This document shows, in pieces, positions 965 to 9,759 of a stretch of DNA of 64,000 bases. Every line of letters starts with the position of its first letter. Positions within the stretch are counted from its first letter, which is position 1. The notes beneath the pieces are model-generated. The model was not told the DNA's origin. It made no database searches and worked only from the letters and a program-made list of their open reading frames with translations. The translations under genes and the position numbers were made by a program. This stretch comes from Kocuria coralli. Lineage in GTDB: Bacteria; Actinomycetota; Actinomycetes; Actinomycetales; Micrococcaceae. The DNA lies in contig NZ_ML708610.1 in assembly GCF_008831305.1 (NCBI RefSeq), forward strand, positions 1-64,000, read 5' to 3'.

Positions 965-2977
965 TTATCGGTGAATTTTCGTTGTGGATGCAGAGGGAAG
1001 ATGTTCGCCGATGTGTCCCACGTAGATGCTGCCATCGCTTGTGACCTGATCGTGGTAGTGAATGCGTAGCTTTCTCTCAGCGGTCCAGCTATAGGGTTTG
1101 AAGTGTGCCCACATGTAAACCGCGCCGCTTTTGTCTACAGTGGTTGGCACAGGTAGAAGTCTCGCCTTCTTGCAGCGACTATCCTGCTTGGTAGCCCCCG
1201 TCTCTCCTCGGGAGTGTTTGTTGGGCGGAACACGATAATTGCCCAATGGGCCAGATTCACAAAACTCATGGATGTCGCTCTCCCAGTTGCCTGCGAGTAT
1301 TGCTTCTCGATACGAGGCCAGCGTTCCGAAGGCCTCCCATGCTGCACTCAGCGCCGAACCGTCGACGTCCATGCTCGCAAGTTCTCTGAGCCTCTTTGTG
1401 TTCGCTGTAATGACAATCTGGTGTTGGAGGAGGTCTTTGCAGGCGACCAGTTGCTCCCAAGTCACCGGGCATTCCCCGAGAGGGTTTTCTGGAGCGTCTT
1501 GGTCGGTGAAAGAATATGCAGCCTCAGGATCTGTTTCTGCGACTTTCGACCGAAGATAAGTGATTTCTCGTGTCGCTCGAGAGTACAAGGCCTCAAGCCG
1601 ACCTAGCTCATGACGCGCGTCGACCTTTTGAATCTCTTCGTTGAGCGCATCGTCTTCCAGACTCTCTATACGCGCCTGGAGGGAATCTGTGGTGTCGAGG
1701 AGGGTGTCGATTGCGTTCTGGTCCGGGATGGTCCGAGTAGCGGCATCCACGAGTTCGAGGAGGGAATTTTTGCTTAGGTCGTCGAGCATAAGCGTCTCCC
1801 GTACAACCCTAAGTTTATGCTCCGCCATGCTCAGGGCGGTTTGGGAATCAGCAAGTTTTCCTTGCAGTAGGGATATCTCAGATGTGGAATCTTTGTGAGG
1901 CGTCGATGGGTCAGTTCTGGGGGGTAGAGGAAGCCTGTCAGGCGAGTCCGATTCGTACGGGTCGACTGTTGAGTGCTTCTCCGTGGCGGGGTCGCGTTGC
2001 CTGTTGGCGTGTTGTTCTCGGATGCTATTTAAAGAGGAAATTGCGGGGGCGACGGATTCACGGAGTTTACCGTTGGCTATTCGAGTGAATGCGCGTGACC
2101 ATTCCTTCGTGGTAGATGGAAGCGGTAACGGTTGTGCGGCAGCGTGCTGGCGAACAAAACTCTCGATCGTCTGCTCGATATCTTTGTCGTTACCGGCCAA
2201 TGATTGGTGGCCGAGCCAGCGTGCTGTCTTCCCGGTCACCGGGTCGGATATATCGATGCCTGGGGGGTAGGTGCGAAGCGTGCCAGATTGAACGGCACGG
2301 TCGCCATGTCGAGATTTGAATTCATCTGCGGCGAGTGGGTCCAGCGAGACAACATGGGCAATGCCGACAGTCTGTTTAGTCCACTTGTTCACGTAGGTGT
2401 TCCAGCGATCGAAAGATGCACCGTTTATCGGAGCTGCGATAATAACAGGAAGCCGGCGGTTCGGGGCATCGATCAGGGATTCAATAGAGTCTAGGTCGCT
2501 GGCGGATGTGTATGAGGCTTCCGGTCTCAGAGGCGCTACGTCATCGAAATCTACGACTTCGAGAAAAAGGTTCGCAAAAGCAGGCTTTTTCACGATTTTT
2601 CGCGAATCATTGCATGTTACCGTAATCTGCAACCATCCACCCCGCGGTGTTTCCACGGCAAGGATTGTCACGATGAAGGTTACTCCATTGTTGGTGTTCC
2701 ATGCGCGGAGGCGCATGCCGTGGTCGCGGCCAGCGACTCGGTGTAGAGTCTGCGCGCGCTTGGACCGATCAGGACTGGAGACATCGTCGTCGACCGAGAG
2801 GTCGAAATCCAGGTCAAGGCGATCGCGCAGCCAGGTCGCCGCCTGATCAATGACGCGATCCATCCAGCCGATAGGCTCTTCGGTTGTCCAAAATGACTGG
2901 TAATCCCGGTGTGACAAGCGAGGTAGGAGCGTCTCGGCTGCCGGGGGGCCAGGAGCGATCTGCGGTGCACTAGCCAT
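965..2977 (-). CDS. Uncharacterised 670-residue coiled-coil protein in IS-flanked island (defence-like candidate)
   Basis: I do not recognise a named family. The ATG at 2977 is chosen because GGAGGT lies 6-7 bases upstream; a frame-open extension to 3028 lacks such a site. Visible parts: an N-terminal alpha/beta region (residues 1-175); a second globular region (about 176-280) with GIAHVVSLDPLAADE and then GTLRTYPPGID; a polar linker rich in Pro/Ser/Asp (about 340-380); a coiled coil (about 385-505); and a C-terminal cap with YMWAHFKPYSW, RKLRIHYHD and IYVGHIGEHLP. There is no signal peptide, membrane segment, Walker motif or obvious nuclease motif. The lower GC content and the IS remnants on both sides indicate transfer. 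An island-borne defence or stress role is inference only. Confidence 0.8.
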   Translation of the reverse strand: MASAPQIAPGPPAAETLLPRLSHRDYQSFWTTEEPIGWMDRVIDQAATWLRDRLDLDFDLSVDDDVSSPDRSKRAQTLHRVAGRDHGMRLRAWNTNNGVTFIVTILAVETPRGGWLQITVTCNDSRKIVKKPAFANLFLEVVDFDDVAPLRPEASYTSASDLDSIESLIDAPNRRLPVIIAAPINGASFDRWNTYVNKWTKQTVGIAHVVSLDPLAADEFKSRHGDRAVQSGTLRTYPPGIDISDPVTGKTARWLGHQSLAGNDKDIEQTIESFVRQHAAAQPLPLPSTTKEWSRAFTRIANGKLRESVAPAISSLNSIREQHANRQRDPATEKHSTVDPYESDSPDRLPLPPRTDPSTPHKDSTSEISLLQGKLADSQTALSMAEHKLRVVRETLMLDDLSKNSLLELVDAATRTIPDQNAIDTLLDTTDSLQARIESLEDDALNEEIQKVDARHELGRLEALYSRATREITYLRSKVAETDPEAAYSFTDQDAPENPLGECPVTWEQLVACKDLLQHQIVITANTKRLRELASMDVDGSALSAAWEAFGTLASYREAILAGNWESDIHEFCESGPLGNYRVPPNKHSRGETGATKQDSRCKKARLLPVPTTVDKSGAVYMWAHFKPYSWTAERKLRIHYHDQVTSDGSIYVGHIGEHLPSASTTKIHR

Positions 2978-3370
2978 ATCAACTACCTCCATGCATAGTC
3001 CTAAACTGGATTGTAATCTAACAGCCATGGTATATGCGAGGTGAAAATGAGTCTAGGCATGATACATTAGCTTGCGGCTCCCGTCGTCGGTGTTAGTTGC
3101 TGAACGGTCCCGGCGAGTGGTGTCACATGGGCGCCGGATGAGTGCAGTCGTCGCAGTCCTCGGTTGCACAGCGTAGGTTGAGTTACAGTTCACTCACAAA
3201 AGCGCCCTGAGTTTCGTTTCGTGGATTAACAGTTGCTGGTATGGCCGTCGTGGTGTCTGTGTAAGACGGGGTTCGACCTCGGGTGGCAGCGCGGTGATCC
3301 AGAGCTTCATGGAGACGTTTTGTTTTCTATTATTTAACCTAATTTAGGGTGGAGATCTCGACCACAGTTA
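2978..3370. other. Upstream region of the island gene; no gene seen
   Basis: This 393-base stretch precedes the minus-strand gene starting at 2977 and should hold its promoter; its GGAGGT ribosome-binding site is at about 2984-2989. No frame here shows protein similarity. The part nearest 3310-3350 is AT-rich and abuts the IS3 orfB remnant. Confidence 0.4.
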
Positions 3371-4225
3371 TCAAGGGTCGATGCGGAGTCGATGGGTGAG
3401 TTTGGCTTTGTAGAGACCATTGAACGTCTCGGATGGGGAGTTGTCGTAGCTGTTAAGACTGTGGCCAGACGCGGGAGATGATCAGTATGTCGGAGTTGGC
3501 CAGCGAGACGTATTTGCTGGGTTCAGTCGACCTTTACAACACCGGAGTGTTGTTGTGAGCGTAACTGCTCTTTGAAGATTTCGGCGGGAGTGTGCCAGCC
3601 GAGGCTCTTGCCGGGACAGGATGAAGAGCCTGCCCGAGAGTGGCAAGGGCAGTGCCTCGGTGTGGAGGCTGCACCTGGGCGTCCAGCCGGCGATCTGTCA
3701 GGTGTAGACGTCCGTGATGAGTGCGGTGTAACAGAACCTAGTCGGGATCAGGGCGTATGTGATTTCCGAGACCCATATATGATTCAGTCTGGCAGCGGTG
3801 CAGCCTCGCTAGACGAGATCGGGACGAAGATCGGGTCCAACAGCAGGAGTCGTCGTGGTACTTTTCGGCCGCGGCGTATCCCGCTGGGATCAGCAGCCCT
3901 CATCAACCTGGGGCTCTGATTGCGGCCGATGTCTCATCCAGCGCGGCGCATCGCATGATGCGTCTTTCGATACCCGTAGACGCCTAGTTCTCGGCATGGG
4001 TCCGTCGTGTCTACCTGATTGGCACTTTGTCACGGATGGTTCGAGCCGAGGCCGGGCGTCCTCTCGTGGCATGGTAGCCACGAGAGGCAATATACCCACG
4101 GTCTGTCGCACCGAAGGCGTGAAGATGGGCGCGGCCCCGAGGCGATCGCGGTATCTGTCAATGAAGGCGATCATTTCGTCTTGGGTGGTTGAGTTCTTTG
4201 GAAAAACGTTGCCGACGCAGCGTAC
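3371..4225 (-). mobile_element. Degenerate IS3-family element (orfA end and orfB), internally interrupted
   Basis: On the minus strand the OrfB start MIAFIDRYRDRLG is at 4174. Frameshifted pieces follow: GVYGYRKTHHAMRRAGW near 3950, then TYALIPTRFCYTALITDVYT near 3720-3770 (DDE-domain region), and finally SYDNSPSETFNGLYKAKL near 3400-3450, ending in a stop at 3371-3373. Just before OrfB the residues AASATFF and PPKTK match the end of an OrfA. Several stops and frameshifts make it inactive. A short IS30 remnant splits the last two pieces. Confidence 0.75.
3519..3615 (-). mobile_element. IS30-family remnant: transposase C-terminus plus terminal repeat
   Basis: Minus-strand translation gives GKSLGWHTPAEIFKEQL, ending GVVKVD and a stop at 3523-3525. 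This matches the C-terminal tail of IS30 transposases (RKxLxWxTPAE pattern). Directly beyond the stop lies an IS30-like terminal repeat (3519-3543, GGGTTCAGTCGACC outermost). Only the last 30 or so codons survive, so the element is a deletion remnant lying inside the IS3 orfB remnant. Confidence 0.65.
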
Positions 4226-4304: not shown

Positions 4305-4919
4305 TCAAGGCCGGGCGTTGTCCCACCTGACCGGAATTCCGAGAACCGAAAGCCTCGTCTTCAGCTTCACGAGGTCATTACGAAAGTCGTCACTGTCCAC
4401 ATTGGGCTGCAGTTTTTTGGACTTGCCGTTTCCCCAGGACTCGAACTGGGCCACGATTTCCTCTCGGCGCGCCGCAGCCATGTCGTCGTCGATTGCCAAG
4501 GCTGCGGATAAGAGTTCAGCGTTGCGGATGATCTCGGCAAGGTGCCACTGAAGCTGCGTTGTCCTTGCGTCCTTCACTACCGCTATGTCAAGGCCTTCGA
4601 TGGCGAGGGTCGCGGCCCCGGTGCGCTCGATGGCCCAGATTAGTCGGTAGCACGCTCGCGTCACATCCTGCTCCGTTGGTTCATGCCCGACGGATGACCC
4701 GTAGCGCAGGGTGCCTACGAGATGGCGGGCCTCCTCGACTTCCCCCGATGTCAGATCGCTGAGCATGGCGACGACTGTCCCCCTTGCCTCAGTCGATTGA
4801 TGGAGGGCCTGCCGGCGTTGGTCGGACTTCCGCCAGCGTCGCTCGAGTAAGAAGCCAGCCCCTGCTACACCTGCAGTGGTGATCACGGACAGGGTGGCGA
4901 TAACGGTCTCTGGGCTCAT
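4305..4919 (-). CDS. Uncharacterised single-span membrane protein
   Basis: The 204-residue protein begins with one hydrophobic segment (about residues 5-25, TVIATLSVITTAGVAGAGFL), followed by a basic stop-transfer (ERRWRKSDQRR). The long cytosolic part is largely helical and charged. It has no cysteine clusters, nucleotide-binding motif or other feature I can assign. The gene is transcribed away from the divergent stretch at 4920-5400 and is followed by the truncated small ORF at 4290. It sits in the low-GC accessory island next to IS remnants. A bitopic protein with a helical cytosolic domain could be an effector or anchor, but the sequence does not show which. Confidence 0.75.
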   Translation of the reverse strand: MSPETVIATLSVITTAGVAGAGFLLERRWRKSDQRRQALHQSTEARGTVVAMLSDLTSGEVEEARHLVGTLRYGSSVGHEPTEQDVTRACYRLIWAIERTGAATLAIEGLDIAVVKDARTTQLQWHLAEIIRNAELLSAALAIDDDMAAARREEIVAQFESWGNGKSKKLQPNVDSDDFRNDLVKLKTRLSVLGIPVRWDNARP

Positions 4920-8396: not shown

Positions 8397-8577
8397 CTCA
8401 CGTGCGGCGCGCGACGGTGCACCGCGCCCCAGAGGGGTCGGTCTGGTTGCCGATGAAGATGGTGTTGCGGCCTCGGGTGAATTAGCCTCCCTCGAGGCCT
8501 CAACCATGAAGAGCTAGATGAGGTCTTGTCTGCGGCGCGGTGCGCGCTTATATCCGGGGAAGCGAGGAGGGGTGGCA

Positions 8578-9759
8578 TTGGCTGGTGACTTGGCTACTGA
8601 ACTCCTGCCGATTCTTGGTAGGTCACTAGACCCAGGATTCAACGTGTTCGATGTCATGCATCACGGAACTCATGAGAAGCAACTCTCCAATGTTTTCGGA
8701 TGGTTGCTTGATATCGGTGGATCCCATGATCTGCACGACCGTTTCCTGCGGATCTTCATCGATGAGGTGAACGTCGCGAGTGCAGATCTCGCCCCGTTCC
8801 CGCATGGGAATTACAGGGTGCGGCAAGAGGTGAATACTGCCACGGTGATCGGCAGGGATGACATCGCAGACCTGGTGCTCGAGACCGACTACGCATCGCT
8901 CGTCGTCGAGAACTACTTCACGTCGGATGGCCATGGCCATGGTTATGAGCGCTATCTGGAGTTCAGCAGACGTGATGGCAGACGGGGTGCCGTGGTCCTG
9001 CTGTGCCGGGAAGAGGACCGATCCCGGCAATCCCATGGATGGGAGAATGCACGGGTCGTGACGTACAGCAGATTGATCGACCGACTGCACGACGTGCTAG
9101 ATGCCGACGTGCACTATCAACAGACGAACCCGGACTCGTACTCCTTCATCAACCAGATGCATCGGAAGTTCGTGAGCGAAAGAGGGCTTGTGGGAGATCG
9201 AGAATTGCTCCGCTTCATGACAGCCATGTGCGATACCGGAGAAGCCGAGAGATATCGGATACGCAGGCAGGACGAGGCGGCAGAGCAGTTTGCCAGTGAC
9301 CTGGCTGTGCAAGCGCGGGAGCGGTATGTAGAAGGACGTGAGCTTCTGCAGCGGGTCAAGAGCCGCCTTCGGACCTTCGTCGATGGCCCCCTGGTCGATC
9401 AGCTCAGGGACACCCTTGGTGACGACTGCATCCGCAAGGTCAGTGCAACCTACGCCGGGATCTACCAGTGGACCATCAACTTCGATATTGCTGGAACCAC
9501 AGCCGACTCCGGTGGATCTCATATTCAGCTCAAGTTCGGTCCTACGGCATGGTTCGCCAATGAACGGACTCCAGCCTGGAGGAGCACGGTCGATCCAGAA
9601 GTCGCAGACTACTCGCATGTCTTCATTACCCATGTCGATGCCTTGATGATCCGTCAGACGACAGTGACTCTCGAGGAAGTGCTCGATGGCCTCGACTCCA
9701 GCGACCGACGTCTTCATGACGAGATCATCGGGCTTCTCAACCCGTGCCTCAGGGGGTGA
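8578..9759 (+). CDS. PD-(D/E)XK nuclease superfamily protein (orphan)
   Basis: The 393-residue protein (TTG 8578, eight bases after AGGAGG; the in-frame ATG at 8518 has no comparable site) has the order of PD-(D/E)XK_4 proteins: HEKQLSNVFGWLLD, then VRQEV, then IADLVLE and LVVENYFTSDGHGHGYERYL. Thus E, D and E are kept, but the usual catalytic Lys of ENK is Tyr. The C-terminal half contains a helical stretch and a beta-rich domain of unknown role. Relatives occur as single genes in accessory DNA and have been guessed to be defence nucleases. No methylase or ATPase partner is adjacent. Activity is unproven. Confidence 0.7.
   Translation: MAGDLATELLPILGRSLDPGFNVFDVMHHGTHEKQLSNVFGWLLDIGGSHDLHDRFLRIFIDEVNVASADLAPFPHGNYRVRQEVNTATVIGRDDIADLVLETDYASLVVENYFTSDGHGHGYERYLEFSRRDGRRGAVVLLCREEDRSRQSHGWENARVVTYSRLIDRLHDVLDADVHYQQTNPDSYSFINQMHRKFVSERGLVGDRELLRFMTAMCDTGEAERYRIRRQDEAAEQFASDLAVQARERYVEGRELLQRVKSRLRTFVDGPLVDQLRDTLGDDCIRKVSATYAGIYQWTINFDIAGTTADSGGSHIQLKFGPTAWFANERTPAWRSTVDPEVADYSHVFITHVDALMIRQTTVTLEEVLDGLDSSDRRLHDEIIGLLNPCLRG

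What the first reader, a model, noticed from the sequence alone, without database searches (positions are those of the whole stretch)
965..2977. Large coiled-coil protein of unknown family in an IS-flanked island
A 670-residue protein with two globular N-domains, a coiled coil and a compact C-cap lies in lower-GC DNA between IS remnants. It has no recognised catalytic motif. Size, architecture and setting resemble single-gene or partner-requiring defence proteins, but function is not shown by the sequence.
Basis: partly seen in the sequence, partly recalled or inferred. Interest (0 to 1): 0.65.

Follow-up and report, generated by a model that had tools for sequence, protein, structure and literature searches.

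The report
Defence protein with RelE-like toxin tail
A large coiled-coil protein on a small mobile island looks like a divergent member of a little-studied anti-phage candidate family, and its end is predicted to resemble the bacterial RNA-cutting toxin RelE, suggesting it shuts down translation in infected cells.

Summary
The protein is real: window 965-2977, minus strand, 670 aa, intact, good ribosome-binding site, IS3 sequence on both sides. 'Unknown family' does not hold. It is a divergent relative of PADLOC's candidate defence family HEC-07 (direct match to the middle domain; full length only through intermediates). Its C-terminal domain is shared by sequence with NsnC, whose operon has the composition of the published ptuXYZ, where PtuZ ends in a RelE-type (BECR) domain. 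AlphaFold2 gives a confident C-terminal domain (pLDDT 88.7); 14 of the 15 structural neighbours listed are toxin-antitoxin toxins, nine titled RelE, YoeB, YafQ or HigB (best Z 6.4, modest). H625, R638 and H659 are conserved in 32, 32 and 31 of 32 diverged sequences, as expected of an active site. The middle domain predicts a thioredoxin fold without cysteines. Relatives are rare and patchy; 6 of 23 loci have DISARM, BREX-type or McrBC genes nearby, 0 of 20 control regions do, and neither does this window. No antitoxin-like neighbour recurs. Best reading: a single-gene, antitoxin-less defence toxin (sensor, coiled coil, RelE-fold RNase). Fold and context are computed; trigger, RNase activity and phage protection are inferred.

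The parts
965..2977 (-). Gene for the 670-aa HEC-07-like protein (P0001)
   Evidence: intact frame; PADLOC HEC-07 1e-10 and NsnC 1.2e-8; Subtercola relative 51%
2985..2990 (-). Shine-Dalgarno GGAGGT, 7 bases before the ATG
   Evidence: printed
2555..2905 (-). N-terminal beta-rich domain, residues ~25-141 (low-confidence model)
   Evidence: AlphaFold2
2120..2542 (-). Middle domain, residues ~146-286: thioredoxin-like fold without cysteines; the part matched by HEC-07
   Evidence: VIA Z 11.0, 108 residues, 2.6 A; Foldseek rows mostly thioredoxins from E about 1e-3, none below 0.001; cysteines only at 122, 503, 513, 573, 602; HEC-07 match 155-291
1532..1891 (-). Coiled-coil region, residues ~363-482
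   Evidence: long helices (pLDDT mostly 45-75); weak match to LmuB (0.0026)
983..1480 (-). C-terminal domain with predicted RelE/YoeB/YafQ fold, residues ~500-665
   Evidence: AlphaFold2 pLDDT 88.7, pTM 0.86; VIA Z up to 6.4, 14 of 15 listed rows toxin-antitoxin toxins; NsnC match 590-664
1103..1105 (-). Codon of H625, proposed active-site residue
   Evidence: H in 32 of 32 rows
1064..1066 (-). Codon of R638, proposed active-site residue
   Evidence: R in 32 of 32 rows
1001..1003 (-). Codon of H659 (GxHL motif), proposed active-site residue
   Evidence: H in 31 of 32 rows, K in L072
28..339 (-). IS3-family transposase OrfA region at the contig end
   Evidence: 86.2% to an annotated IS3 transposase; HTH_Tnp_1 in ORF 3-323 minus
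3683..4196 (.). Decayed IS3-family sequence on the other side of the gene
   Evidence: 66.6% to an annotated IS3 transposase

Best explanation
The gene encodes a HEC-07-like, single-gene defence toxin. The N-terminal part, including a thioredoxin-fold domain without redox cysteines, acts as a sensor or docking module. The coiled coil makes the protein oligomerise and transmits the signal. The C-terminal domain is a RelE/YoeB/YafQ-fold (BECR) ribonuclease using H625, R638 and H659. In the resting protein the toxin domain is held inactive in cis, since no antitoxin-like neighbour recurs. A phage-derived signal, or tampering with a resident restriction system, releases it; it cuts mRNA, probably on the ribosome, and stops growth before phage release. 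Shown by computation: gene, homology, predicted folds, conserved residues, genomic associations of relatives. Inferred: autoinhibition, trigger, RNase activity, ribosome dependence, protection.
For: Sequence links to HEC-07 (1e-10, residues 155-291) and NsnC (1.2e-8, residues 590-664); relatives match HEC-07 over profile 16-401 (L018, 4e-26) and at its C-terminus 344-551 (L023, 1.2e-13). NsnC lies in an operon with GmrSD_N (DUF262) and AAA/DUF3696 ATPase genes (L072 and L073; NsnA, NsnB, NsnC models for L072), the composition of ptuXYZ in Gerdes 2025 (PMC11980606, section 26 read), where PtuZ ends in a YoeB-related BECR domain. AlphaFold2 of the C-domain: pLDDT 88.7; of 15 VIA rows, 9 are titled RelE, YoeB, YafQ or HigB, one PfiAT, four are other toxins or toxin-antitoxin proteins (their RelE kinship recalled), one is Txp40; best Z 6.4 over 86 residues at 2.7 A. 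H625 32/32, R638 32/32, H659 31/32 with median pairwise identity 25%. Middle domain thioredoxin fold Z 11.0. Defence genes near relatives: DISARM in L018 and L022, PglX and BrxL in L019, DrmD and DrmMI/type IIG in L054, BrxC and PglX in L049, McrC with an AAA ATPase beside the same-genus homologue L047; 6 of 23 loci against 0 of 20 controls (one-sided Fisher 0.017, with the circularity told below). Patchy: 2 of 27 genus genomes, 8 of 396 phylum genomes, own included. No recurring antitoxin-like neighbour.
Against: No Pfam or NCBIfam toxin model matches. Foldseek alone listed no RelE-type toxin among its 33 PDB matches nor a named one among the 50 shown of 83 viral ones, and VIA Z 6.4 is below the level 8 that the tool treats as telling by itself. 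hhalign against small YoeB and YafQ sets (5 and 2 sequences) found nothing. A PDB profile search with the C-domain gave CP12 at 0.00075 over its helical part, judged chance. The window's 144 ORFs of 150 aa or more match none of 17 DISARM, BREX, McrBC and Nsn queries at 1e-3, and one side is cut by the contig end. 17 of 23 homologue loci showed no such gene. The PADLOC library did not recognise the McrBC-like pair of L047 at 1e-20. No activity data.
Confidence: 0.55

Rival explanations
1. Accessory subunit rather than killer: the RelE-fold domain has become an RNA- or ribosome-binding or protein-docking module that helps a resident restriction system (BREX, DISARM, McrBC) recognise its target.
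For: The L019 gene lies between brxL and a HEC-06/Orf5-like gene, all in one orientation; the L047 homologue lies head-to-head with an AAA ATPase-mcrC pair (coordinates).
Against: The proposed active-site residues are invariant or nearly so; the neighbouring systems differ and 17 of 23 loci lack those tested, as does the window.
Confidence: 0.15
2. Mobile-element function: a plasmid or phage gene for maintenance or exclusion of competing elements, built on the same toxin domain.
For: Members on 4 of 72,556 plasmid records and on 10 IMG/VR contigs, one with a phage portal gene; IS3 on both sides of the window gene.
Against: In 4 of the 7 other genomes the gene is on a contig over 1 Mb; several relatives lie beside restriction genes; no match in 50,697 phage records and none in viral contigs for P0001 itself as query. 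Phage-borne copies may equally act against rival phages.
Confidence: 0.13
3. ParE-like action: the C-domain shares the fold but inhibits DNA gyrase or another target instead of cutting RNA.
For: One structural neighbour is titled YoeB/ParE; the fold does not decide the target (PMC11980606, abstract and introduction).
Against: ParE toxins lack the catalytic residues of RNase members (same paper), whereas here H/R/H is conserved.
Confidence: 0.1
4. Decaying island cargo with no present function.
For: IS remnants, low GC, contig edge, only 2 of 27 genus genomes carry a relative, own included.
Against: Intact 670-aa frame, good ribosome-binding site, the three most conserved C-domain residues kept.
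Confidence: 0.07

Closest known systems
HEC-07 (Hma-embedded candidate, PADLOC-DB 2.0.0)
   Same: Middle domain by direct match; whole architecture through intermediates; relatives lie in defence loci
   Different: Direct match covers only profile 169-304 of 553; no restriction neighbour found in the window; diverged N-domain and a few extra C-terminal residues
NsnC / PtuZ of NsnABC, which looks like ptuXYZ
   Same: C-terminal domain by sequence (1.2e-8), assigned in print to the BECR fold for PtuZ
   Different: About 310 aa, described for PtuZ as PIN-like domain plus helical linker plus BECR domain, and comes with NsnA and NsnB, which are absent here
RelE/YoeB/YafQ type II toxins
   Same: Predicted fold of the C-domain
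   Different: Not a small toxin with an antitoxin gene, but the end of a 670-aa sensor/coiled-coil protein; no Pfam match and no profile similarity detected
ARMADA type II ArmD and CoCoNuT CnuH (RelE-like domains fused to helicases; PMC12458937 and PMC11090510, passages seen)
   Same: A RelE-like domain built into a multidomain protein of a defence locus
   Different: Those are fused to helicases; no helicase here

Membership tests
HEC-07 | Match to the PADLOC HEC-07 profiles | tested here: met
   1e-10, 39 bits, residues 155-291; the tool shows no PADLOC cut-off
HEC-07 | Homology over the full length | tested here: met
   Not direct; through L018 (profile 16-401) and L023 (344-551), both alignable with P0001
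HEC-07 | Embedded in an Hma system | tested here: inconclusive
   Not scanned with Hma models; 17 DISARM, BREX, McrBC and Nsn queries found nothing in the window, and the contig ends 0.97 kb downstream of the gene
HEC-07 | Antiviral activity | not testable with these tools
   A passage of PMC12988326 says several HECs were active, naming HEC-06; the primary preprint was not seen
RelE/ParE (BECR-fold) superfamily | beta-alpha-alpha-beta-sheet fold | tested here: met
   Predicted model only: order E23 H30 H43 ... E109 E121 E126 E138 E153; VIA Z 6.4, 14 of 15 listed rows toxin-antitoxin toxins
RelE/ParE (BECR-fold) superfamily | Conserved catalytic residues of the RNase branch | tested here: inconclusive
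   H625, R638, H659 conserved; their equivalence to YafQ/YoeB residues is by eye and recall, not by a residue-level structural alignment
RelE/ParE (BECR-fold) superfamily | RNase or gyrase-poison activity | not testable with these tools
   needs an assay
Pfam YoeB, YafQ, RelE or ParE families | Match to the Pfam model | tested here: not met
   The only Pfam row is Glyco_transf_18 at 0.018, below its cut-off; not filed there
Type II toxin-antitoxin module | Cognate antitoxin gene next to it | tested here: not met
   No neighbour recurs in most loci (ORFs of 70 aa or more). Among 122 same-strand ORFs of 30-250 aa within 500 bp in 22 loci, the only clear match is a ~220-aa protein in three viral contigs; two marginal pairs at E 0.007-0.008
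NsnABC / ptuXYZ | NsnA and NsnB genes in the operon | tested here: not met
   NsnA and NsnB queries have no match in the window at 1e-3; the contig end leaves the downstream side open beyond 0.97 kb

The most novel reading that the evidence does not exclude
A widespread class of antitoxin-less 'embedded toxins' in which one RelE-fold RNase tail is combined with swappable heads: thioredoxin-like (this protein), ATP-cone with a nucleoside-deoxyribosyltransferase/SLOG-like region (L054, L056), and PIN-like plus ATPase partner (NsnC). They would act as guards inside BREX, DISARM and McrBC islands, blocking translation when the first line fails.
Probability: 0.35. Interest if true: 0.72.

Novelty: new variant of a known kind. 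Interest (0 to 1): 0.5.

Why it matters
In the libraries used here HEC-07 carries a name but no description. Naming its relative's tail as a RelE-fold toxin, with three residues to mutate, and its middle as a cysteine-free thioredoxin fold turns 'unknown coiled-coil protein' into a testable mechanism. It would connect NsnC/PtuZ, HEC-07 and nucleotide-binding variants into one modular toxin class, and would explain why such genes sit beside very different restriction systems.

Tried and rejected
Housekeeping or structural protein: rejected, no Pfam/NCBIfam match above cut-off and patchy distribution. Glycosyltransferase: the Glyco_transf_18 hit (0.018) is far below its cut-off. PDB sequence searches: the 60 of 93 matches shown for the family profile lie in the coiled-coil region; the C-domain profile gave 8, best CP12 at 0.00075, not followed. 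Foldseek on the C-domain had no match at 0.001 in PDB or in viral models; only the VIA second look showed the toxin fold. hhalign against YoeB/YafQ sets failed. Viral-contig scans with P0001 alone and with the L054/L056 pair found no relative; the genome-contig scan found one.

Papers, listings with titles and starts of abstracts unless said otherwise: 'NsnC' or 'defence' (5 of 126,355 listed, none on the protein), 'HEC-07' (one unrelated paper), HEC names with PADLOC (9), RelE/coiled-coil/DISARM/BREX terms (15 of 50), RelE-like/thioredoxin-like/anti-phage (4), guilt-by-embedding (5 of 141,166), HEC-07 again (10 of 12), ptuXYZ/NsnABC (2 listed), BECR/thioredoxin/coiled-coil (10 of 27). None listed describes the domains of HEC-07 or this combination; bioRxiv is not held as a collection, so absence from print is not shown beyond these searches.

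Caveats on counts. Neighbourhood: the query proteins came from the homologue loci themselves, so those loci match by construction; the control shows only that such genes were not met at 20 positions that I chose at round numbers in 12 genomes holding relatives. The raw script count is 7 of 23 (4 of 14 and 3 of 9); I dropped L057 because its match looks like a general DEAD-box helicase by eye. An earlier run with other queries gave 8 of 36 regions, including NsnC loci matched by NsnB and L057. Most loci were not scanned gene by gene with PADLOC. Conservation: the 32 C-domains were chosen from loci fetched as homologues; left out were L049, L052 and L053 and the second L012 protein (they end differently), L051 (split frame), members that I did not extract (G121, G145, G272, G291), and duplicates (L076, L079, L083, L085, L086).

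Full report
Observation. The ORF at 965-2977 lies on the minus strand and encodes 670 residues without internal stops. The ATG at 2977 follows GGAGGT by seven bases. The window starts at base 1 of a 379-kb contig. Its first four kilobases have GC 0.535-0.557, against 0.649-0.736 (median 0.69) beyond 10 kb. IS3-family sequence lies at 28-339, next to the contig end, and a decayed copy at 3683-4196.

Family. Pfam and NCBIfam give nothing above a cut-off, but PADLOC gives HEC-07 at 1e-10 (residues 155-291) and NsnC at 1.2e-8 (residues 590-664). The closest relative found is in Subtercola vilae (51%). More distant relatives (18-33% over the full alignments) occur in 8 of 396 sampled genomes of the phylum and 2 of 27 of the genus, both counts including the window's own genome, in 4 of 72,556 plasmid records, in none of 50,697 phage records, and on 10 IMG/VR contigs, one of which carries a phage portal gene. 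The HEC-07 model itself rings in 18 of 296 and the NsnC model in 11 of 198 genomes of the phylum, own included, and in none of 14 control genomes. Relatives of intermediate divergence match HEC-07 over most of its length: L018 over profile 16-401 at 4e-26, L023 at the C-terminus 344-551 at 1.2e-13. P0001 is thus a divergent HEC-07-like protein, by a chain of homology rather than by one full-length match.

Anatomy. The middle domain, 146-286, has a thioredoxin fold (VIA Z 11.0 over 108 residues at 2.6 A; Foldseek rows mostly thioredoxins from E about 1e-3, none below 0.001) and holds none of the five cysteines of the protein, so it is not a redox enzyme of the usual kind. Long helices follow (363-395, 420-482). 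The C-terminal domain predicted alone has pLDDT 88.7 and pTM 0.86, with a short strand, helices, then antiparallel strands. I had written down a RelE/ParE-like fold as the hypothesis before the result of the search was collected. Of the 15 rows listed by VIA, nine are titled RelE, YoeB, YafQ or HigB, one PfiAT, four are other toxins or toxin-antitoxin proteins whose RelE kinship I recall, and one is Txp40; best Z 6.4 over 86 residues at 2.7 A. Foldseek itself listed no RelE-type toxin among its 33 matches and Z is below 8, so the fold call rests on the uniform identity of the VIA rows together with the next argument.

Second link. The NsnC match leads to loci L072 and L073, where NsnC follows GmrSD_N (DUF262) and AAA/DUF3696 ATPase genes; for L072 these are the PADLOC NsnA, NsnB and NsnC models. 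This is the composition of ptuXYZ described by Gerdes (PMC11980606; abstract, introduction and section 26 read), whose third protein PtuZ has a PIN-like domain lacking catalytic residues and a C-terminal YoeB-related BECR domain. That NsnC and PtuZ are the same family is my inference from operon composition and architecture. It gives the same fold for the C-terminal domain by a route that does not use my structure model.

Active site. In an alignment of 32 C-domains (23 close-family, 7 more distant, 2 NsnC; median pairwise identity 25%), H625 and R638 are invariant and H659 is kept in 31 (K in L072); these are the three most conserved columns. By eye they fall where YafQ and YoeB have conserved histidines and an arginine (their sequences printed; the catalytic roles are recalled). 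hhalign between this family and small YoeB and YafQ sets found no similarity, so residue equivalence is not proven.

Context. Neighbours vary. L018 and L022 carry DISARM drmA and drmB (L018 also a DrmMI-type methylase); L019 has pglX, brxL, the family gene, a HEC-06/Orf5-like gene and a drmD-type helicase in one orientation; L054 has drmD and a type IIG/DrmMI gene. L049 has brxC and pglX next to a strong HEC-07. In the same-genus genome the homologue is divergent from an AAA ATPase-mcrC pair (Pfam; not recognised by PADLOC at 1e-20). That is 6 of 23 cellular or plasmid loci, against 0 of 20 control regions scanned with the same queries (one-sided Fisher 0.017); the circularity of this count is told under Tried and rejected. 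The window itself gives no match to 17 such queries over all 64 kb, and its downstream side is lost at the contig end. No antitoxin-like neighbour recurs. A survey of BREX neighbourhoods describes 'backup suicidal effectors', with HEPN, PIN and Schlafen RNases (PMC12839542, passages); the passages shown name no RelE-fold one.

Modularity. Two distant members keep the toxin-like tail but replace the head: L054 and L056 have an ATP-cone (2.2e-7 and 7e-7), preceded in L054 by a region with weak DUF4406, SLOG and nucleoside-deoxyribosyltransferase matches (0.0015-0.0033, below cut-offs) and in L056 by a similar stretch seen only in their alignment. Conversely L012:5550-6929, L052 and L053 keep the HEC-07-like middle part but end in another short motif (by eye). 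This supports a sensor-coiled coil-effector plan.

Mechanism. I commit to a cis-inhibited RelE-fold RNase released upon infection, with the thioredoxin-like and N-terminal domains as sensor and the coiled coil for assembly (0.55 overall; the RelE fold itself I would put near 0.85). The trigger is unknown. The location of relatives beside different restriction systems suggests a guard role, as known for PrrC in type I restriction loci (recalled). ARMADA ArmD and CoCoNuT CnuH are published examples of RelE-like domains in other multidomain defence proteins (PMC12458937 and PMC11090510, passages).

Novelty. HEC-07 exists as a named PADLOC candidate; the HEC class is mentioned in PMC12988326 (passages), while its primary preprint was not available, and the 2021 PADLOC paper, of which I saw passages, does not use the name (PMC8565338). 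None of the searches of the held library listed a description of its domains or of this combination (most of them capped lists). I rate it a new variant of a known kind.

Noticed in passing
window 8518-9759 (+): PD-(D/E)XK nuclease-superfamily protein (PF14281, 4.4e-7) in a second local low-GC patch; a possible further defence gene.
   Followed up: partly
window 4305-4919 (-): 204-aa protein with a hydrophobic N-terminus upstream of the gene; weak PADLOC PD-Lambda-6 match (0.0028), no Pfam match.
   Followed up: partly
L012:5550-6929 (-): In Subtercola a second HEC-07-type protein (PADLOC 2e-12) lies convergent to the relative of the window gene and ends in a different motif, also seen by eye in L052 and L053.
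   Followed up: partly
L054:9345-10742 and L056:8651-10342: Relatives with an ATP-cone instead of the thioredoxin-like domain; L054 also shows weak nucleoside-deoxyribosyltransferase/SLOG matches and lies beside DrmD and DrmMI/type IIG genes.
   Followed up: partly
L060:6813-8585 and L060:13504-15663: A family member on a 156-kb viral contig that also encodes a phage portal protein (phrog_2833, 6.9e-136).
   Followed up: partly
L078, L080, L081 (viral contigs): A shared protein of about 220 aa follows the family gene in these three contigs (46-63% identical); function unknown.
   Followed up: no
L019:3980-4318: Reading frame similar to the window's IS3 OrfA (29.6% over 98 aa, 7e-6) overlaps the start of a pglX frame that matches the PglX profile only from about position 485: the pglX may be interrupted by an insertion sequence.
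   Followed up: no
L072:9903-10841 and L073:8927-9916: NsnABC operons match the composition of the published ptuXYZ; the two names appear to describe one system.
   Followed up: partly
A12 profile against PDB: The C-domain profile matches the small protein CP12 at 0.00075 over its helical part; probably chance, not followed.
   Followed up: no
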